Assembly: GCA_016183065.1 (NCBI GenBank)
Contig: JACPFF010000015.1
Location: forward strand, 62,001-126,000
DNA from: Deltaproteobacteria bacterium
Lineage (GTDB): Bacteria > UBA10199 > GCA-002796325 > JACPFF01
Direction of reading: 5' to 3'
Length of the DNA: 64,000 bases
In this document: positions 27,811 through 43,296 of the stretch, piece after piece
Layout: the number at the start of each line of letters is the position of its first letter
Position numbering within the stretch: the first letter of the stretch is position 1
Made by a program: the position numbers and the translations under genes
Notes under the pieces: model-generated
Seen by the model: only the letters and a program-made list of their open reading frames with translations
Told to the model about the DNA's origin: nothing
Database searches by the model: none

Positions 27811-27975
27811 TCCGGGGTCCCACGACCCAGCGCGCACCGCGCGCGCGAGGGGGAGGCTCCAGCGGCTTTGCCGCTGGAGGGGTCGGTGGCGACGACCGAG
27901 TCCGGGGACCCAGCGAAGCTGGGTGGACGAGGAAGTACCCGGAGGCGGAGCCGCAGGGTACGTGAGCCCCTCTAA
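27811..27975. repeat. GC-rich modular repeat element, single copy
   Basis: Shares the modules GACCCAGCGCGCACCGCGCG, GACGACCGAGTCCGGGGA and CCCAGCGAAGCTGGGTGGAC with the tandem array at 34.4 kb. This copy has two extra hairpins: one at about 27857-27880 (CTCCAGCGGC against its complement) and one at about 27936-27960 (TACCC...GGGTA arms). It fills the convergent gap between the hypothetical gene and dnaK and could also serve as a transcription barrier. Confidence 0.8.
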
Positions 27976-27990
27976 TAGTATGCGTCCCGA

Positions 27991-29910
27991 TTATGACATC
28001 TCTTCGAATTCGGCGTCGACGACCTTGCCATCTTTTGGCGGGGACTCGCCGCCTTCCTTCGGCTGCTTTTCCCCGCCACCCGCCGTCCCGGTCGCCTGTT
28101 GGGCCTGCTGGGTGCTCGCCTTGTACATGGCCTCGGCCATGGCGTGAGAACATTGCTGCAACTTCTCCATCGCTCCCTTCAATTTTGCGCCGTCTTTGGA
28201 TTCAATGGCTCTCTTGCATTCTGCCACTGCGGCTTCGACCGGAGCGCGTTGCTCGGCGGGAATCTTCTCGTGATTCTCCTTCACCGTTTTCTCTGTGGCA
28301 TAAACGAGCGAATCGGCCTGATTGCGCAGATCGATCTCCTCGCGTCGTTTTTTGTCGTCGGTTTCATGCGACTTGGCCTCGGTAACGAGACGCTCAACGT
28401 CCTCTTTCGCCAGACCGCTGGAGGCCGTGATGGTAATGTGCTGTTTCTTGTTCGTGGCCTTGTCCACTGCGCCGACGTTCACGATGCCGTTGGCATCGAT
28501 GTCGAAGGTGACCTCAATCTGTGGAATCCCTCTCGGTGCCGCGGGAATGCCATCCAGCATGAATTTTCCGAGCGAGCGATTGTCGGAGGCCATCGAGCGT
28601 TCCCCCTGCAACACATGCACTTCGACGGACGTCTGCCCGTCGCCGGCCGTGGAGAAGATCTGCGACTTCCGCGTGGGAATCGTGGTATTGCGCTCGATCA
28701 TCGGGGTCATCACGCTCCCCTGCGTCTCGATGCCCAAGGTCAGCGGCGTGACATCGAGCAGCAGCATGTCTTTGACGTCGCCGGCCAGGACGCCACCCTG
28801 GACCGCCGCACCGCAGGCGACGACTTCATCGGGGTTGACCCCTTTGTGCGGTTCACGACCGAAAAATTCCTGCACCAACTGTTGCACTTTCGGGATCCGT
28901 GTCGAACCACCCACCAGAATGACTTCGTCAATATCGCTCGCCTGTTTGCCGGCATCCTGCAGGCAGCGCTTGCACGGTTCCAGCGTGCGATGGACGAGAT
29001 CGGCGACCAGGGATTCGAATTTGGCCCGCGAAATTTTCATCACGAGATGTTTGGGACCTGTCTGATCCGCGGTAATGAATGGGAGATTGATCTCGGTCTC
29101 CATGGTGCCCGATAATTCACATTTGGCTTTTTCGGCGGCCTCTTTGAGGCGCTGCAAGGCCTGTTTGTCCTTCGACAGATCAATGCCCTGGTCCCGTCGA
29201 AACTCCTGCATGATATATTCGGTCAAGGTGTGATCGAGGTCGTCACCACCCAGATGGGTGTCGCCATTGGTGGCGACGACTTCGACGACATTTTCGCCGA
29301 CTTCCAAAATGGAGATATCGAAGGTCCCTCCACCAAAGTCGAAGACCGCAACGGTCTCGTCTTTTTTCTTGTCGATGCCATAGGCCAGTGCTGCGGCGGT
29401 TGGTTCATTAATGATCCGTTTCACCTCCAGCCCCGCGATTTTTCCGGCGTCTTTCGTGGCCTGCCGCTGACTATCGTTGAAATAGGCCGGGACGGTAATC
29501 ACGGCCTCTTGCACGGATTCACCCAAATAATCTTCAGCGGCCTTTTTCAGTTTCCGCAAAACATGGGCGGAAATCGCCGGTGGGGCATACCGCTGACCCC
29601 GCGCCTGAATGTGGGCATCGCCGTTATCCGCGGCGACGACCGTATAGGGGACCCGTTGTGATTCTGCCGTGACTTCATCGTGCCGACGCCCGATAAATCG
29701 CTTGGCGGAAAAAATCGTATTCTCCGGATTAATGGCGGCTTGCCGTTTTGCGGATTGTCCGATCAGGATCTCACCACCCTCCCCAAAGGCGACGACCGAG
29801 GGGGTCGTACGGGCGCCCTCTTCGTTTTGAATGACTTTCGGTTGGCCGCCCTCCATGACAGCCACACAGGAGTTCGTGGTTCCAAGATCAATTCCGATGA
29901 TTTTTCCCAT
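27991..29910 (-). CDS. dnaK: Chaperone protein DnaK (Hsp70)
   Basis: ATP-driven chaperone that binds exposed hydrophobic segments of client proteins. The 639-residue protein has [11 protein letters not shown] at the N-terminus, [27 protein letters not shown], the linker/substrate domain [15 protein letters not shown], and the usual low-complexity tail ending DAEFEE. ATG 29910 is preceded by GGAGGAG; a longer frame to 29976 overlies the promoter. It is transcribed away from dnaJ rather than with it, and grpE and hrcA are not adjacent. Confidence 0.98.
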
Positions 29911-34424: not shown

Positions 34425-34720
34425 GCCCCACCACCCAGCGCGCACCGCGCGCGAGAGGGGGAGGCAGTGGCGACGACCGAGTCCGGGGACCCAGCGAAGC
34501 TGGGTGGACGAGGGAGTCCCCCAGCGCGCACCGCGCGCGAGAGGGGGGGCAGTGGCGACGACCGAGTCCGGGGATCCAGCGAAGCTGGGTGGACGAGGGA
34601 GTCCCCCAGCGCGCACCGCGCGCGAGAGGGGGGCAGTGGCGACGACCGAGTCCGGGGATCCAGCGAAGCTGGGTGGACGAGGGAGTCCCCCAGCGCGCAC
34701 CGCGCGCAATAGTGGGGCAC
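34425..34720. repeat. Tandem GC-rich repeat array (three full and one partial unit)
   Basis: Unit of about 85 bases, beginning CCCAGCGCGCACCGCGCGCG at 34434, 34520, 34605 and (partial) 34689. Spacings of 86, 85 and 84 differ mainly by the length of a G-run. Each unit carries the hairpin CCAGCGAAGCTGG and the self-complementary GCGCGCACCGCGCGC. Related sequence occurs once at 27.8 kb. There are no unique spacers, so it is not CRISPR. Long reading frames through it on both strands are artefacts of composition. Confidence 0.9.
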
Positions 34721-35386: not shown

Positions 35387-35635
35387 ATGAAACAGCGAAA
35401 AGGGGATGGCGGACGGATTCTCTATCCTGGATTGATCATTCGGGGGGGTGGTGAGGCGCTCCTGATGATGGGATCAGCTAATTCGTCACCCCGTCAGGGG
35501 TTTACTCGGCGCACACACGGTCTGGTGCAAATTCTCAGGGAAGTTGGTGGGGTGCACAAATCCTCATTTTCTGTGGATAACCCTGTGGATCATCAGAGAA
35601 ATCCGCATAGTAATGCTTGTAAGAAGTTGGTTTAA
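35387..35635 (+). CDS. Possible small ORF after pgsA
   Basis: An 82-codon frame starting ATG 35387, 11 bases after pgsA, with AAAGGGGGGG just upstream. The product is basic and without recognisable motifs (MKQRKGDGGRILYPGLIIRG opens it). Its 3' third contains two DnaA-box-like sequences, and its composition does not resemble the neighbouring genes. I cannot say whether it is translated. Confidence 0.25.
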   Translation: MKQRKGDGGRILYPGLIIRGGGEALLMMGSANSSPRQGFTRRTHGLVQILREVGGVHKSSFSVDNPVDHQRNPHSNACKKLV

Positions 35636-35760
35636 ACGGATTGCCTAAATAGTAATCAGATAAAACACTATTTAATTCAGGATCTATCAAAAATGAACCT
35701 CAGGTAGTCTTTCCAGACTTCTTTAGATTTTTGGGGAACATATTTTTGTGGATAAGAAGT
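35560..35760. other. DnaA-box cluster in an AT-rich gap (candidate origin or DnaA-binding site)
   Basis: Two perfect DnaA boxes (TGTGGATAA, the complement of TTATCCACA) at 35572-35580 and 35747-35755 and a near match (TGTGGATCA) at 35584-35592, all in the same orientation, flank about 120 bases that are markedly AT-rich against a GC-rich background (35625-35746). This is the only long AT-rich non-coding stretch of this kind in the window. However, flanking genes point toward it, which is the opposite of what an origin usually shows. Confidence 0.4.
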
Positions 35761-35783: not shown

Positions 35784-38453
35784 TCAACGCCATTCTTGAA
35801 GTTTTTCTTGAAGAATGGTTCCTGTAGTGGACTCGGTCCACTCCACCCGGATGATCGGTCGACCCCGGGAGAGCTCTTCGTGGACGGTCAATACCCCCAT
35901 GGCTGTGAAGGCGCGAATGGCATTCCGGAAGGTGACTTCAGAAATGGCCTCGGGGTCGCCCAGTCTCCCGAGCCGTAAGAGATGGGTCCCATAGGCCCTC
36001 GCCTCCCGACAGAGTTGTCGGACGTCGAGTGGCGCTTCTGCACACTGCACCGCGGTCTGCAGGAGCACATGGTAGGAGGTGAAATAATTGCGAAGGACGT
36101 TCGCAAAGATCTGCAAGGTGTCGAGCGACTGGGGGATGACCTCAATCCCTGATATGATGGGATCGGTCGCAAGGTCGGTTTCGTGCCTCAGGGTAATCAT
36201 CCCACGCTCCACCAAGTAATTGAGATCTCTTTTGAGATGCGGTCGTAATTCCCTGTGCGTGGCGAAGACAAACTCCTCCCGAAAGAGGCTCTGACAGAGA
36301 CGAAAGTCCTCCTCAAAGGCGGCGAGTGAGACCGCACGACTGGCGCCAGGGCGGGCACTCGCCTTGAGCACGGTCGCTATGGTGCTGATCGTCACCAGGT
36401 AATGGATCATGGTGTTTTTGCTCAAGTCGAGGGCCGGTCGATGACGATGGTCGAGCAGATAGTAGATCGGTTCGAACTGATCATGATAGTCAAGGAGCCG
36501 TTGTCGGCGGAGCTGCACGAGGACTTCGTCGATGGTCTGCTCCGGGTCGCGTTCGAGACGCTTTGTGCATTCCACCGTCCGCCACCGGAGATAGTCGAGG
36601 AGGCCATGGACTGCTGCGGTAATCTCCTGCCGTGTAATCGCGGGCCTCTGAGAGAGGAGGAGTGCCGTGGCCGTCAATGCCATGGGGGTCACGAGGATCC
36701 CGCGATTGATCTGTCGCATCAGGGTCGTGGCCAGATGTTGCGTGACCGCGCGGTGGTCATGATCCGCAAGGTCGGTGGCCTTGATCGATGGCCCCACGAC
36801 CTCCTGCAGCACGGTGTGGTAGCGCACGGGTTCACCGAACGTGAGGTAAATCCGCCCATACCGATGCCTGAGGTGTCGGCCCAGTCGGATCATTTCCCAG
36901 AACGATTCGCGTTTCTTCTGGTCGCCGGCAATTTCCGACAAATAGGCCCGCTCTTCCGCCACTTGATCATAGGTCAGCGACACGGGAATGTAGCGGAGAT
37001 CGGTCAGCACGCCACGCCGCAGGGTCTCCCCCATCATGGAAAGGATGCCCATCCGGGGCATCAGGGGTTTTCCCGTTCGGGACCGTCCTCCCTCGATAAA
37101 AAATTCGACCACACTCCCTTCACGCAACAGGAGGGTGAGATAGGCGGAAAAAACGGCACGATAGAGGGGGTTGCCGCGAAAAGAGCGACGGACGAAAAAG
37201 GCCCCGCAGCGGCGCGCAATCTGTCCAAAGGGCCAGAAGGCGAGGTTCATGCCTCCGGCCACATAGGGGAGAGCCAGCTGATGTTGATAGAGAAAGGTCG
37301 AGAGGAGCATATAATCGACATGACTGCGGTGGTTGGGGACAAGGACGATCGGTCCCTCGGCCATGGCCGTGCGAAGGGTTTCCAGGGAGCGTGGATCATG
37401 CTCGATCCCGTCAAACATGAGCCGGAAGATCCACCGGACGATCTTGCCGACGATTTCGACGTACCGATAATTGACGTCTGCAGCAATTTCCCCGACATAT
37501 CGACGGGCAAGGAGTTGGAGGTCGTCGACCGATCGCTGCTGCTCCTGGGCGATTGTGTAGAGAGCCCGCTGGAGTTGGGGGTCTTCCAGCGTCTGTTCGA
37601 TCATCCAGCGTCGCGGTTTCAGTCGGGGTCCGGCAATCGCCTTTCGTTCGCAAAAGAAACGATGGAGAAGCTGGTCACGCAAAAGTTGTGCCCGCGCTCC
37701 TTGATCGCCCTCCGGGTGGCGTGCCAGAAAATCGGTCAGGAGGATCGGTTCGCCACATTGGACCAGGGTGCGCGTCTTGTAATTGCGGAGGAAGAGGAGG
37801 CACTTGCGTAATCGCCCCGGTGTGATCCGGTCTCCAAAGAGGAGGTCGAAGAGGGACTTGGCGCTCTTTTCGGGCCGTCGGTCCCAGAGAAACTGGATCG
37901 GCACGACCGTACACGGGGAAGCGATGGTCCCGGCGGCAGTCAGAACGGCCTCAAGCGGGTCGGAGCGGCTGCTCTCCCAAAAGCGGTCATCGTAGAGTCG
38001 CGAGGTCCGGATGCGAAGCAGCACCGCATGCCCCTGGGTGATGAGCTGCTGGAGGTGGCCACTCGTCACTGGATGGGGGATGGACTGCCGTTGCAGCCAC
38101 TGCCGACAGCGTTGCCACCATTGCGCACGATACGGCCGCCAGCGCTGCCAATGGGTGGTATGGACATTCGGGGCGTAGGCCGTGAGCGGCAGGCGGTGTT
38201 CGAGAAACAACCAGTTGAAATAGTGATACTCGAAGGGACCGAGCAGCGGGGTCACAAAGATGAGGGGTCCTTGAGCCGCACGCGTTCGGAGCTCTTCCAT
38301 GGCATACCCCGTGATGGTGATCTCACGGAAAAATGGGGCGATCAGCCGGTGGTGGAGCGGCGAGAGGGCGGGTGCCATGGCCGATGTATACGGATCGTGG
38401 TCTGGCATGGCGGGGGGGACTGCCGGAAAGAGGCGCAATGTCGGTTGGGTCAT
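35784..38453 (-). CDS. plsB: Glycerol-3-phosphate 1-O-acyltransferase PlsB
   Basis: Inner-membrane enzyme adding the first acyl chain to glycerol-3-phosphate. The 889-residue protein has the catalytic acyltransferase centre NHRSHVDYM (His375, Asp380), GAFFVRRSFRGN, FIEGGRSRTGK and YIPVSLTYDQ, plus a long helical C-terminal half as in gammaproteobacterial PlsB. The N-terminal ~280 residues contain a second, diverged acyltransferase-like region (FVTPLLGPFEYHYFN, VVPIQFLWDRRPEKS). The ATG lacks a clear Shine-Dalgarno and an in-frame ATG lies 15 codons inside. pgsA and plsB face each other across the AT-rich gap. Confidence 0.94.
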   Translation of the reverse strand: MTQPTLRLFPAVPPAMPDHDPYTSAMAPALSPLHHRLIAPFFREITITGYAMEELRTRAAQGPLIFVTPLLGPFEYHYFNWLFLEHRLPLTAYAPNVHTTHWQRWRPYRAQWWQRCRQWLQRQSIPHPVTSGHLQQLITQGHAVLLRIRTSRLYDDRFWESSRSDPLEAVLTAAGTIASPCTVVPIQFLWDRRPEKSAKSLFDLLFGDRITPGRLRKCLLFLRNYKTRTLVQCGEPILLTDFLARHPEGDQGARAQLLRDQLLHRFFCERKAIAGPRLKPRRWMIEQTLEDPQLQRALYTIAQEQQRSVDDLQLLARRYVGEIAADVNYRYVEIVGKIVRWIFRLMFDGIEHDPRSLETLRTAMAEGPIVLVPNHRSHVDYMLLSTFLYQHQLALPYVAGGMNLAFWPFGQIARRCGAFFVRRSFRGNPLYRAVFSAYLTLLLREGSVVEFFIEGGRSRTGKPLMPRMGILSMMGETLRRGVLTDLRYIPVSLTYDQVAEERAYLSEIAGDQKKRESFWEMIRLGRHLRHRYGRIYLTFGEPVRYHTVLQEVVGPSIKATDLADHDHRAVTQHLATTLMRQINRGILVTPMALTATALLLSQRPAITRQEITAAVHGLLDYLRWRTVECTKRLERDPEQTIDEVLVQLRRQRLLDYHDQFEPIYYLLDHRHRPALDLSKNTMIHYLVTISTIATVLKASARPGASRAVSLAAFEEDFRLCQSLFREEFVFATHRELRPHLKRDLNYLVERGMITLRHETDLATDPIISGIEVIPQSLDTLQIFANVLRNYFTSYHVLLQTAVQCAEAPLDVRQLCREARAYGTHLLRLGRLGDPEAISEVTFRNAIRAFTAMGVLTVHEELSRGRPIIRVEWTESTTGTILQEKLQEWR

Positions 38454-38503: not shown

Positions 38504-40693
38504 CTACTCGCCATTGAGTTGCTTTTCGAGTTTCTTCTTCTCGGCCTCTTTTGCCGCGATCTGCCCCTTGAGATCATCGATCTCGTCGGCGAGTTCCTCG
38601 TTTTTCTCCTCGAGTTGTTCTTCGTCGGAGAGCTCGTTGTAGGCTTGTTCTTTTAATCCGAGTTCCTGTTCAAGGTTGGTAATTTCGTCCTTCAGCGTTG
38701 CCAACTTGTCTTGATCGGAGACATTTTCATCAACCATGGGGGTGAAATCAAAGGGATAGGTCCCGGTAATGGTGTCCCCTTTCACCTCACTCACATCGAC
38801 AGAGGTCCCCGAGGCAATGACCGTATTATTCCCCACCTTGTCGTGGACGTGGGTGATGCCGCCGACCACTTCGACCGGGCTCCCATCGACCAGAATGGGT
38901 GTGCTGGCGGGGATGCCATGCAGTTCGACCACGAGCTGCTCGTAGCCCTCCATGGTCTGTTGGATGAAGACGAGCTGGAGGACGCCATTATGTTCCATCA
39001 GAATGGCATCGGTAAATCCCTCGGGCATGGCAAAATCGAGACTCGACGGGTCGGACCCGGCGCCGGTCAGGACGATCTTCTCGCCAACGATGAAATCTTC
39101 AAGGTCCTCCGAATCATAACTGGCCCAATGGAAACTGTCGTCATCGGCGTTCTGAGTACCCCAGGTCATGAGACTCGTTTCCACGCCCTCGTCATCCGTC
39201 GAGATCTCGAGCTGTTGTTCGAGGACCTCTTTCATCCCACTTGTGCTGAGGGTCGTCTGTCCCAATTCATCGAGAGGAATCCCGAGCGAGTCCAGATAGG
39301 TCTTCGGGGCGAGAATCACGTCATTCCCGACGGTATCGAAGATCCCCATCGATGTCCCACCGGTCAACGTGACCTGGCTGAAGTCGATCATGTTCGTCTC
39401 GCCATTGCCATAAAAGTTGAGTGTCAATGCCTGGTCGGGATCAAAAAAGCCGTTGATCTTGATGCGCAGCGTCCGTGGGGTGCCATTGGCATCAAAGCCG
39501 ACCATGGTGATGATGAGCGCATTGCCACTGCTGGCCGGCTCCGCGCTCGCCATGGTGTAGCCCTTCGGCATATCGATCGAGAGCGTGCCGTTGGTGACAT
39601 CATCGGCGTCGATCACGAGGGTGCCACTCTTGTAATCGCTCTGGGAGAGATCCACACCGGTGATAAATGAGGAAGGTGGCGGGGTCTCCAGGATCTCGGT
39701 CGCCCCGGGATTTTCATGTTCCGAGACTGCATCGCCGGCGGAGTTGACGACCTTGTCCTGACTGCCGCCACCGGCACGGATGATGTCGATCCCCGCACCG
39801 CCGTCGATCGTGTCATTGCCGTCGTCGCTCCCAAAGCCGATGGCGCCATTTTCGTTGAAGCCATCGCCGAAGAGACGGTCCTTACCTGCGCCGCCGTAGA
39901 TCTTGTCGTTGCCCGCACCACCGACGAGGACATCGTTCCCCTGTGAACCGAGAATGACGTCATTGCCTTGACCACCGAAGACCACAATGCCCCCTGGTTC
40001 ACCAAAGGGCGTGCCCCAATTACCATCGCTGACGCGGGCCAGGAGGTGATTGTCGGAGACCAGTTTTTGCGCCTTGTCCGCGCCATAGATGTAGAACATC
40101 TCCGGCCGGACCGCCATGTTCTTGAGGACGTAAACCTCCTTGGTGCCATCGGTCTTGACGACCTGCACATGGATGTCTTTCCCCACGGTCATGGTGTTCA
40201 CTTCTGCAATCGAATCATCGGCCACAAAGGCCAGGGCATTCGAGGTGGCGGGATTGTTCGGATCGTAGCCACTGTTTTCGAGCATGATCGTCCCGGCATA
40301 GGTCCCGCTCATGGCATGCGGGACCCCGGCATCCACGGGATAGGTCTCGAGGGCACCACTCATGTCGTTCCATCCGACCGACATCTGCGCGAGTTCCTCT
40401 TTCACCGCATCAAAATCGACGTCCGTGCCATCGGGATATTTGCCGGTTTTGACAAAGGTCTCGTAGTTGTCCACGAGGGCCTGTTCTGCCTCGAAGAGTG
40501 CCATGGTCTCGGCATATTTGGCCTGGTCTTCCATGGAGAGATACGCGGAAAATTCCCCCGCGTTCTCGAACTCCTTTTTTTGCAGTTCGAGGTCCTGCTT
40601 GAGCTGCTCCAGGGTCAACTGTTCCTCTTGCGAGAGGACGTTGCTCTCCGTCTTTGGTGCTGCTCCGGCCTTGGCGATCCCTTTGATACTCAT
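38504..40693 (-). CDS. RTX-type calcium-binding repeat protein
   Basis: A 729-residue protein without a Sec signal. Residues ~1-100 and ~660-729 are charged helices or coiled coil (LTLEQLKQDLELQKKEFEN; IAAKEAEKKKLEKQLNGE). Residues ~240-308 carry RTX nonapeptides (GGQGNDVILGSQGNDVLVG and following units), which fold as a calcium-binding beta-roll in type I secreted proteins. The remainder is beta-rich and acidic. A GGGAG ribosome binding site precedes the ATG, which overlaps the stop of the upstream large gene (ATGA). Secretion is likely; no transporter is nearby. Function unknown. Confidence 0.85.
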   Translation of the reverse strand: MSIKGIAKAGAAPKTESNVLSQEEQLTLEQLKQDLELQKKEFENAGEFSAYLSMEDQAKYAETMALFEAEQALVDNYETFVKTGKYPDGTDVDFDAVKEELAQMSVGWNDMSGALETYPVDAGVPHAMSGTYAGTIMLENSGYDPNNPATSNALAFVADDSIAEVNTMTVGKDIHVQVVKTDGTKEVYVLKNMAVRPEMFYIYGADKAQKLVSDNHLLARVSDGNWGTPFGEPGGIVVFGGQGNDVILGSQGNDVLVGGAGNDKIYGGAGKDRLFGDGFNENGAIGFGSDDGNDTIDGGAGIDIIRAGGGSQDKVVNSAGDAVSEHENPGATEILETPPPSSFITGVDLSQSDYKSGTLVIDADDVTNGTLSIDMPKGYTMASAEPASSGNALIITMVGFDANGTPRTLRIKINGFFDPDQALTLNFYGNGETNMIDFSQVTLTGGTSMGIFDTVGNDVILAPKTYLDSLGIPLDELGQTTLSTSGMKEVLEQQLEISTDDEGVETSLMTWGTQNADDDSFHWASYDSEDLEDFIVGEKIVLTGAGSDPSSLDFAMPEGFTDAILMEHNGVLQLVFIQQTMEGYEQLVVELHGIPASTPILVDGSPVEVVGGITHVHDKVGNNTVIASGTSVDVSEVKGDTITGTYPFDFTPMVDENVSDQDKLATLKDEITNLEQELGLKEQAYNELSDEEQLEEKNEELADEIDDLKGQIAAKEAEKKKLEKQLNGE

Positions 40694-43125
40694 ACCGTAC
40701 TCCCGGATGTGTCACCCGCTTCGAATTCTTTTTCGAGCAGGGCCTCTTCCCCCTCGAGGCTTTCGTCCATTGGGACGGATATGCCAAAGACATTGCGATA
40801 TTCATCGAAGAAGGCCGTGATGTTATTTTGTGTCTCCTGATAGACCGGGCCGTATTCGTTCCAGGCCTCTTGTTCAAGGAGGTCGCCCTCTGCCACCAGG
40901 GTCGGGTCTTTGTTGATCTCCTCCAGGAGTGCATTGCGCGCATCGGTATAGGCGTCGACCATCTCCTGGTCGGAATTGGCACTCTCGCCGCTATAGCCGG
41001 TCGGGAGATCATAGACCCCTTCGGTCACGGTAAACTGCAGGTCGCCGCCGGAGATCTTGTATTCATCGTCGTTATACATCCGTTCATTCGAGGCATTATC
41101 GCCGACGTACTCATCGGCTTCGTCTGTCCCCACCTTGGTCTTGATCGTCCCACCGATCACTTCAATGTCATCGCCCGGTTTCCCCGGTTCGGTCGGATTG
41201 TCGATCATGGTGAGGCCTTCCGGGGTATCGTTTTCCACATACACGCCGGGATTCTCCAGATATCCCTTGGTGGTGCCGCGCTTGCCGTCAGACTCATCGA
41301 GATATCGTCCCTCAATCTTGCCCAAGGTATGGATGTAGTTTTCATCCCCTTTGCCACCGTTCGTGATCGTCACGTGGGTGACATTGCGGAGGTGCTTGTT
41401 CCCATCGTGTGCAAACACCGCTGTATGGGCATTGCCCGACCCGTTCACAATCGTCGTATACGCGGGATCACCCTTGGTGATGTCGAACTGCTCCTTCGGG
41501 GGGATATCGATGATGCTATTATATTTATCGACATCAATAACCCCATCGATACCGGCAATAATGGGGCCATTGCGGTTGATGACGTCGGCACTTTCTTTCC
41601 AATAGCCATCTTCTGTTAATGTCGGGCCGACATAGCGACCGCCATCGCCAAAAAAATGTCCGAGCGCGTCGCTGTAGCTCCCGCCTGGTGTATTGAAATA
41701 TCCCTGATTGGTCGTCGAGAAGAACCCGCTATCGACCGTGAGATGAATGGGGCTCCGGAGCATCCGGTTGGGATCATCTTTGCTCCCCCCAATATCGTAT
41801 CCGCTCGTCAGGGCGATGGACAATGAAGAGGCGTAGACTTCGTCATTGACCGTTCCCCCGCTCGGACTGGGATGTTTGAGCGGCTCGAGATACTGCTGGT
41901 TGCTGGGCGTGATGGTGGCACTGCCGATCTGCATCTTGAAGAGCTGGTTCCCGTCGGCATCATTGAAGATCAGCAGATGGTCGGCCCCGAGTTCGATCGC
42001 ATCGTTTCCTGGCGCGGTATATTTTTTCGACGTGAGGACAACGTCCGCGACCTGTATCTGCATATAGCGGTCGCGGATCTCCTCGGGCGGGGCCGCGAGC
42101 TCGCCGTTTTCCATCCCCCCGGTGTAGACGACATACCGTTCGTCGACGATTTTTGGGGTCCCATCGGCATAGGTCTCGACCCAGAAGGAATTCGGGATCG
42201 GAATCGTGAGAGATGTTTTGAAGGTGTTCGTTGACCCTTCATACGTGTCGACCCATTGAGAGGGCGCGTTTCCCGTGGCATTGACAAACAGGTCAACACC
42301 TTCCTCAGCATTCGCTGGTGTGGTCTCAAAATTTTTCACACCGGAAGCGCTTAAATCCCAGACGAAATTCGGATTCATGGCATTGCCTTCAAGAAATTCT
42401 CCCGTCACTGAGTCAAACCGGACTGGCTGCATCGTGCTCTTATTGAGCATGGCGTATTCATCCGTCCCCTGTTCGGTCAGTCGGGTGCCGATGAGATACG
42501 AGGAGGTCATGGGATTGCCAATAATTCCGTCATTGTTCACGTCGTAGTAGTCGATCTGGGATTCCGGGACGCCGTGGTCATTGCCATATTTGAGGCCATA
42601 TTCTTTGGCACGCTCGATCTCGATGGCATAGAGCTTGAGCTGTTCGAGTCGGACCTGCTTCACTTCGGCAATGGCGATGTCGATATTGAGGATTGCCTTT
42701 ATGAGCGAATCAAGGGTCTTGACCTCATCCGGCGTGATGGTCCCCTGATGGAGGCGTTCTTCGAGGGCAATTTTTTCGCTCAGATAAATGATCCGGAGGT
42801 CTTCATACTGCTGGAGCACGGTGCCGTCGGCGAACGTGTTCCCCGTAGGGTCCGCCGATTTGCGCAACTCGGCGACCGTGGGGACGCGATAGTCAGGCGC
42901 CATCCCTTGCGAGGCCGCAATAGCCGCATGGAGGGCACCCAAGGGACCGGTGTTCGGATTCTCCACCGGCGGGACGGTCTCGGACGCGACAAATTGAAAC
43001 ATATCTTCCACCGGATCCACCGGGGTGTCGGCGGCGGTGGACCCCCCACCCAGCGGGAGGGTCTCAGTCCCTTTTGCCGAGGCGGGTGAGAGTAGAGAAA
43101 CGGCCTTGAGTGGCTTGATCTCCAT
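40690..43125 (-). CDS. Large uncharacterised protein of the RTX operon
   Basis: Unrecognised 811-residue acidic protein lacking a Sec signal. Residues ~100-190 form a helical, coiled-coil-like block (EDLRIIYLSEKIALEERL, IDIAIAEVKQVRLEQLKLYA). It is followed by an EF-hand-like loop DVNNDGIIG and a long beta-rich part with several Asp/Gly-rich turns (ADHLLIFNDADGNQLFKMQI, AFVHDGNKHL-like). The ATG at 43125 follows TGGAG; an in-frame ATG at 43173 has no ribosome binding site. It overlaps the RTX gene by 4 bases, so the two large proteins are made together and are probably exported partners (inference). Confidence 0.75.
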   Translation of the reverse strand: MEIKPLKAVSLLSPASAKGTETLPLGGGSTAADTPVDPVEDMFQFVASETVPPVENPNTGPLGALHAAIAASQGMAPDYRVPTVAELRKSADPTGNTFADGTVLQQYEDLRIIYLSEKIALEERLHQGTITPDEVKTLDSLIKAILNIDIAIAEVKQVRLEQLKLYAIEIERAKEYGLKYGNDHGVPESQIDYYDVNNDGIIGNPMTSSYLIGTRLTEQGTDEYAMLNKSTMQPVRFDSVTGEFLEGNAMNPNFVWDLSASGVKNFETTPANAEEGVDLFVNATGNAPSQWVDTYEGSTNTFKTSLTIPIPNSFWVETYADGTPKIVDERYVVYTGGMENGELAAPPEEIRDRYMQIQVADVVLTSKKYTAPGNDAIELGADHLLIFNDADGNQLFKMQIGSATITPSNQQYLEPLKHPSPSGGTVNDEVYASSLSIALTSGYDIGGSKDDPNRMLRSPIHLTVDSGFFSTTNQGYFNTPGGSYSDALGHFFGDGGRYVGPTLTEDGYWKESADVINRNGPIIAGIDGVIDVDKYNSIIDIPPKEQFDITKGDPAYTTIVNGSGNAHTAVFAHDGNKHLRNVTHVTITNGGKGDENYIHTLGKIEGRYLDESDGKRGTTKGYLENPGVYVENDTPEGLTMIDNPTEPGKPGDDIEVIGGTIKTKVGTDEADEYVGDNASNERMYNDDEYKISGGDLQFTVTEGVYDLPTGYSGESANSDQEMVDAYTDARNALLEEINKDPTLVAEGDLLEQEAWNEYGPVYQETQNNITAFFDEYRNVFGISVPMDESLEGEEALLEKEFEAGDTSGSTV

Positions 43126-43296
43126 CGCGACTCCAGAAGGAGCAATTTCCTTGCCAAGATGAAAGGGGAGCATCAGAAATAGTGTATTCTATATGACTGA
43201 AATTATTGATGAAATTTGTCGAATATTCCAGTCGACGTCTGTCGCAACATCTGCAGGAGGGGGTATTCGCTCCATCATGGGACCCAAAGTCCCAGG

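What the first reader, a model, noticed from the sequence alone, without database searches (positions are those of the whole stretch)
35560..35760. DnaA boxes flanking an AT-rich stretch: candidate replication origin or DnaA site
Two perfect and one near-perfect DnaA boxes in the same orientation surround about 120 AT-rich bases between pgsA and plsB. This is what a minimal bacterial origin looks like. Against it: genes on both sides point toward the site, as near a terminus, and dnaA, dnaN, gyrB or rpmH are not here.
Basis: partly seen in the sequence, partly recalled or inferred. Interest (0 to 1): 0.6.

Follow-up and report, generated by a model that had tools for sequence, protein, structure and literature searches.

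The report
DARS-like DnaA control site beside plsB
The DnaA boxes are real but do not mark where this bacterium starts copying its chromosome; they belong to a conserved element laid out like the E. coli DARS sites that recharge the initiator protein DnaA, in a group of uncultured 'deltaproteobacteria' for which I found no report of such a site.

Summary
Observation confirmed: TTATCCACA at 35572 and 35747 and TGATCCACA at 35584, same strand, AT-rich spacer, in the convergent pgsA/plsB gap. The origin reading fails: GC skew does not switch anywhere on this 151-kb contig. Its minimum lies beside dnaA on another contig, and at dnaA in two relatives.

The site is conserved in 12 of the class's 21 held families, although PlsB is only 30-49% identical. 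Core: two same-strand boxes 12 bp apart and an opposed box 14 bp further on. Order, orientation and spacing equal boxes III-II-I of E. coli DARS1 and DARS2, measured here on MG1655. A dyad fitting the Fis consensus lies 65 bp outside box III, with one or two more boxes beyond. A profile built without six genomes (the window's included) finds the site in all six (E 6e-11 to 1e-6); E. coli DARS1 ranks next (2.5e-4). In two genomes the element sits away from plsB with its architecture kept. In the window itself, box I is degenerate.

Best reading: a DARS-like, non-origin element that adjusts DnaA activity, perhaps by regenerating ATP-DnaA. The architecture is shown; the biochemistry is inferred.

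The parts
35572..35580 (-). DnaA box II of the DARS-like core (TTATCCACA, perfect)
   Evidence: core columns invariant across 18 genomes
35584..35592 (-). DnaA box III of the core (TGATCCACA, one mismatch), 12 bp from box II
   Evidence: a same-strand box at this offset in 14 of 17 sites
35558..35566 (+). place of opposed DnaA box I (AAATCCTCA, degenerate: 3 mismatches), 14 bp from box II
   Evidence: opposed box at this offset in 12 of 17 sites of the class; weak in the window's own order
35643..35657 (-). dyad GATTACTATTTAGGC, perfect match to the Fis consensus GnnYAnnnnnTRnnC, 65 bp outside box III
35747..35755 (-). outer DnaA box A1 (TTATCCACA, perfect), 163 bp from box III
   Evidence: A1-like box 157-160 bp from box III in f3, f9, f14 and f20
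35560..35666 (-). whole dyad-to-box-I element as found by a profile that excludes this genome
   Evidence: 40.6 bits, E 5.7e-11
35387..35635 (+). small conserved ORF (82 aa, motif LYPGxxxR) whose 3' half overlaps boxes I-III; conserved in the window's order only
   Evidence: no Pfam match
35784..38453 (-). plsB, glycerol-3-phosphate acyltransferase; usual neighbour of the element in the class

Best explanation
A conserved, non-origin DnaA-binding control element built like the E. coli DARS core, shared by a class of uncultured 'deltaproteobacterial' genomes. Shown from sequence: box III, 12 bp, box II, 14 bp, opposed box I; a Fis-consensus dyad 65 bp outside box III; one or two further boxes (A1, A2) 80-160 bp from box III; uniform GC skew around the site, away from dnaA; one strong copy per genome. 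Inferred: DnaA molecules on boxes II and I meet head to head; a dimeric DNA-bending protein on the dyad folds the outer boxes towards the core; the complex changes the nucleotide state of DnaA, most likely releasing ADP so that ATP-DnaA is regenerated for the next initiation at the origin beside dnaA. In the window's own order box I is weak, so there the tandem pair and outer box may carry the function.
For: Boxes present and clustered. Site follows plsB across 12 families. Spacing statistics: box III offset 14/17, box I offset 12/17, dyad at -65 in 10/17 with at most one mismatch, nothing comparable at other offsets. Same geometry measured in E. coli DARS1 and DARS2, which is the published definition of the DARS core (PMC5742627). 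Core pattern: 23 hits in 20 of 46 class genomes, reversed control 0; it matches DARS1 and DARS2, not datA. Held-out profile recovers all six excluded genomes. Relocated copies keep the architecture. Skew excludes an origin.
Against: No biochemistry. Box I is degenerate in the window and weak in its order. No consistent IHF site, which E. coli DARS2 needs. No protein passes NCBI's cut-off for Fis. The profile scores the DARS2 core only weakly (E 0.016) and also gives partial hits to datA and another part of DARS2 (E 0.002-0.003). Nine families show no convincing site.
Confidence: 0.6

Rival explanations
1. A datA-like or titration site: same-strand boxes about 160 bp apart, with a bent spacer, sequester DnaA or promote hydrolysis of its bound ATP after initiation.
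For: In the window the two perfect boxes and the near-perfect one share one strand and A1 lies 163 bp from box III; in E. coli datA same-strand boxes lie 162 bp apart. Box I is weak in this order.
Against: Across the class the core has the opposed box at 14 bp, which datA lacks; the core pattern matches DARS1 and DARS2, not datA; no conserved IHF site.
Confidence: 0.22
2. A DnaA-controlled regulatory region for a neighbouring gene (small ORF, thiolase, plsB).
For: In several families (f8, f13, f19) the core lies just upstream of a thiolase start codon.
Against: Neighbours differ between families while the element stays; in the window all genes converge on it; copies have moved.
Confidence: 0.08
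3. The chromosomal replication origin.
For: DnaA boxes flank an AT-rich stretch.
Against: Skew minimum at or beside dnaA in three genomes; no switch at the site in 17 genomes.
Confidence: 0.02
4. Chance, or a by-product of a coding repeat (VDKxVDK) in the small ORF.
For: In G000, G001, G003 and G005 the box pair is in frame in the small ORF.
Against: In G002 the pair lies after the ORF's stop, and other families keep the pair without the ORF motif; held-out profile test.
Confidence: 0.02

Closest known systems
DARS1 / DARS2 of E. coli (DnaA-reactivating sequences)
   Same: Three-box core with identical order, orientation and spacing (12 and 14 bp); intergenic; away from oriC; accessory sites on the box III side; a Fis-consensus site nearby.
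   Different: Other lineage; dyad at -65 where DARS2 has IHF sites at -87 and -71 and a Fis consensus at -125; extra outer boxes A1/A2; no consistent IHF site; box I degenerate in the window; one strong copy per genome instead of two DARS.
datA of E. coli
   Same: Same-strand boxes about 160 bp apart with a presumed bending site between; intergenic.
   Different: No conserved IHF site; tandem 12-bp pair plus opposed box at 14 bp; the core pattern does not match datA.
DnaA-box clusters of Bacillus subtilis
   Same: DnaA-box cluster outside the origin.
   Different: Not compared by sequence here. B. subtilis is reported to have six clusters and to lack datA, DARS1 and DARS2 (PMC13220808); here one element has a fixed geometry and a dyad.

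Membership tests
DARS | three boxes, I opposed to II and III, with the spacing shared by DARS1 and DARS2 | tested here: met
   Met for the class: offsets 12 and 14. In the window boxes II and III are met, box I is degenerate.
DARS | box I functional in this genome | tested here: inconclusive
   AAATCCTCA at 35558-35566, three mismatches; binding not testable.
DARS | IHF site in the regulatory region (DARS2) | tested here: not met
   No consistent IHF consensus; one perfect site in G002 only.
DARS | Fis site in the regulatory region (DARS2) | tested here: inconclusive
   Consensus dyad at a fixed place, but at -65 rather than -125, and no protein above NCBI's Fis cut-off.
DARS | promotes release of ADP from DnaA | not testable with these tools
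   needs biochemistry
datA | IHF site between same-strand boxes 2 and 3 | tested here: not met
   Same-strand boxes present, no conserved IHF site; core pattern does not match datA.
oriC | lies at the minimum of cumulative GC skew | tested here: not met
oriC | next to dnaA or other origin-linked genes | tested here: not met
   dnaA is on another contig, at the skew minimum.

The most novel reading that the evidence does not exclude
Control of DnaA's nucleotide state by a dedicated non-origin DNA element (DARS) is not restricted to E. coli-like beta/gamma-proteobacteria. It exists in a separate lineage of uncultured 'deltaproteobacteria' with its own accessory geometry (a Fis-consensus dyad 65 bp from the core and an outer box pair), so it is either ancient or arose independently.
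Probability: 0.45. Interest if true: 0.85.

Novelty: new variant of a known kind. Interest (0 to 1): 0.7.

Why it matters
In the papers read here, DARS sites are described only from E. coli and its beta/gamma-proteobacterial neighbours, and B. subtilis is stated to lack them. A core with the same three-box spacing, conserved in 12 families of another lineage, would mean that resetting DnaA through a dedicated DNA element is old or readily reinvented. It also provides natural variants (weak box I, different spacers, relocated copies) for working out what the core and accessory parts do.

Tried and rejected
Origin: rejected on GC skew in three genomes with a located minimum and 14 more with local skew. 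Coding origin of the boxes (VDKxVDK in the small ORF): rejected because G002 and other families keep the boxes outside it. IHF site: searched, not consistent. Hda: no stand-alone Hda above cut-off; the best hits are mostly dnaA itself. Fis gene: only Fis-like C-terminal domains, several in NtrC-type proteins and a short 97-aa one in G013; co-occurrence with the site is only suggestive (f5 and f21 lack both, but f6, f7 and f12 have the protein and no visible site). Plasmid search with the intergenic region: no match. First PlsB scan of genome contigs found nothing; the second gave named relatives. Out-of-class pattern hits in G058, G059 and G060 look like chance or other box clusters (one reversed-control hit in the same set).

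Full report
Observation. They lie in the 408-bp gap between convergent pgsA and plsB, with 67.5% AT between the outer boxes. The genome (G000, 1.97 Mb in 30 contigs, 89% complete) holds only 10 perfect boxes.

Not an origin. dnaA is on contig C8 at about 53.8-55.0 kb, with a perfect box just upstream of its start. Cumulative GC skew on C8 has its minimum at 57.8 kb; on the window's contig C28 it rises steadily over 151 kb. In G002 the minimum is at 75,971 and the dnaA C-terminal match starts at 76,004; in G031 it is at 746,719 and that match spans 746,434-746,640. The plsB-linked site sits in uniform skew in both. In 14 further genomes the strand that carries the core boxes has negative skew on the better-sampled side and no significant switch at the site; in some, one side is only 1-4 kb. 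So the element lies within a replication arm, in the same orientation relative to the inferred fork in all 17 genomes. I draw no functional conclusion from that orientation.

Conservation. I located plsB in the 46 held genomes of the class and read the DNA downstream of it. A tandem box pair 12 bp apart, on the plsB strand, follows the plsB stop within about 100-210 bp in G000, G001, G002, G003, G005, G006, G017, G026, G032, G040, G043 and G045, and in weaker form in G010, G011, G013, G021, G027, G031 and G036. PlsB identity is only 30-49%. No pgsA match was found in the ten relatives' loci searched for it. A search for the 12-bp pair alone shows the same, and a second group of pairs upstream of dnaA.

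Architecture. Anchored on box II: a same-strand box 12 bp before it in 14 of 17 sites (0-2 at other offsets), an opposed box 14 bp after it in 12 of 17 (at most 3 at other offsets). A dyad fitting the Fis consensus GnnYAnnnnnTRnnC starts exactly 65 bp before box III in 10 of 17 with at most one mismatch (6 perfect); no other offset comes near. In alignment A3 the TG...CA ends of the dyad and the box II core are invariant. Further out lie one or two more boxes: A1 157-163 bp from box III in f1, f3, f9, f14 and f20, or the opposed partner A2 at 81, 91 or 101 bp in others; where both exist they face each other at an 11-bp (G040: 12-bp) offset. In the window A1 is 35747-35755, the dyad 35643-35657, box III 35584-35592, box II 35572-35580, and the place of box I 35558-35566, where the match is poor.

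Match to DARS. I read the E. coli DARS1, DARS2 and datA regions from MG1655. In both DARS the boxes run III-12-II-14-I with box I opposed, exactly the geometry found here. The published definition is the same: boxes I-III with the same spacing in DARS1 and DARS2, box I opposite to II and III (PMC5742627; PMC8682772). The class pattern matches DARS1 and DARS2 with two mismatches each, as it does the window site, and does not match datA. The literature read here reports the DARS2 core only from E. coli-like beta/gamma-proteobacteria (PMC4245941; PMC5742627) and says B. subtilis lacks DARS (PMC13220808). I found no report from 'deltaproteobacteria' in the open-access library; that is not proof of absence.

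Tests. (a) Reversed-pattern control: 0 hits in 46 class genomes against 23 for the true pattern. Outside the class there were 3 hits and one reversed hit in 34 genomes. (b) G013 and G022 were found from the boxes alone, and both carry a perfect Fis consensus at -65. (c) A sequence profile built without G000, G001, G002, G013, G016 and G022 finds the site in all six at E 6e-11 to 1e-6; the next hit is E. coli DARS1 at 2.5e-4. The DARS2 core scores weakly (E 0.016), and partial hits in datA and elsewhere in DARS2 score 0.002-0.003, so the profile alone does not separate DARS from other box clusters; the spacing does. (d) G022 carries the element beside mutL, with no plsB found in the genome. G016, also without a plsB hit, has it just upstream of a thiolase gene with mutL nearby; there A2, the dyad and the opposed box I are intact.

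Distribution. Model R1 gives one strong hit (E below 1e-6) in each of 20 genomes; 18 of these were in its training set, G002 and G016 were not. Including G021 the site is seen in 12 of 21 families. Families f5, f12, f21 and several single-genome families show no convincing site. From memory I suspect the GTDB lineage UBA10199; this was not tested.

Mechanism. Shown: geometry, conservation, single strong copy, non-origin position. Inferred from the DARS literature: opposed boxes I and II bring two DnaA AAA+ domains head to head, which in E. coli promotes release of ADP. The dyad probably binds a DNA-bending dimer that brings the outer boxes near the core. Fis-like C-terminal domains are encoded in most genomes with the site: within a 372-aa NtrC-like protein in the window's genome, and as a 97-aa protein in G013. 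None reaches NCBI's Fis cut-off, so the dyad's partner is unknown. Because box I is weak in the window's order, a datA-like or titrating role remains possible there.

Small ORF. In the window's order an ORF with the motif LYPGxxxR runs towards plsB; the box pair lies in frame in it in four of five genomes but after its stop in G002. It has no Pfam match.

Noticed in passing
35387-35635 (+): Small ORF (82 aa) with a conserved N-terminal motif LYPGxxxR, also next to the element in G001, G002, G003 and G005 (same order) although pgsA is not; no Pfam match. May be a real small protein.
   Followed up: partly
34434-34707: An 84-bp GC-rich unit repeated 3.2 times, 98% identical, just upstream of pgsA; a similar 19-mer with 2 mismatches recurs at 27922.
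   Followed up: no
L245 (G002:C5 around record position 28432): A second tandem box pair with an opposed box (TTATCCCCA-12-TTATCCACA, then TGTGTATA at offset 13) in G002, away from plsB; no clear dyad.
   Followed up: no
L243 (G012:C23:55699), L059 (G003:C10:11762), L077 (G005:C104:6821): Tandem pair 12 bp apart followed by an opposed box at offset 11 instead of 14: upstream of dnaA in G003 and G005, elsewhere in G012. A different fixed arrangement, perhaps part of the origin or the dnaA promoter.
   Followed up: no
38504-43173 (-): Two long adjacent ORFs (729 and 827 aa), the first with glycine/aspartate-rich repeats of RTX type (GGQGNDVILGSQGNDVLVGGAGNDKIYGG).
   Followed up: no
L230:652-1770 (G000:C24): NtrC-like 372-aa protein whose C-terminus is close to full-length Fis (74 bits to NF001659, below cut-off); in G013 a 97-aa protein consists of little more than that domain.
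   Followed up: partly
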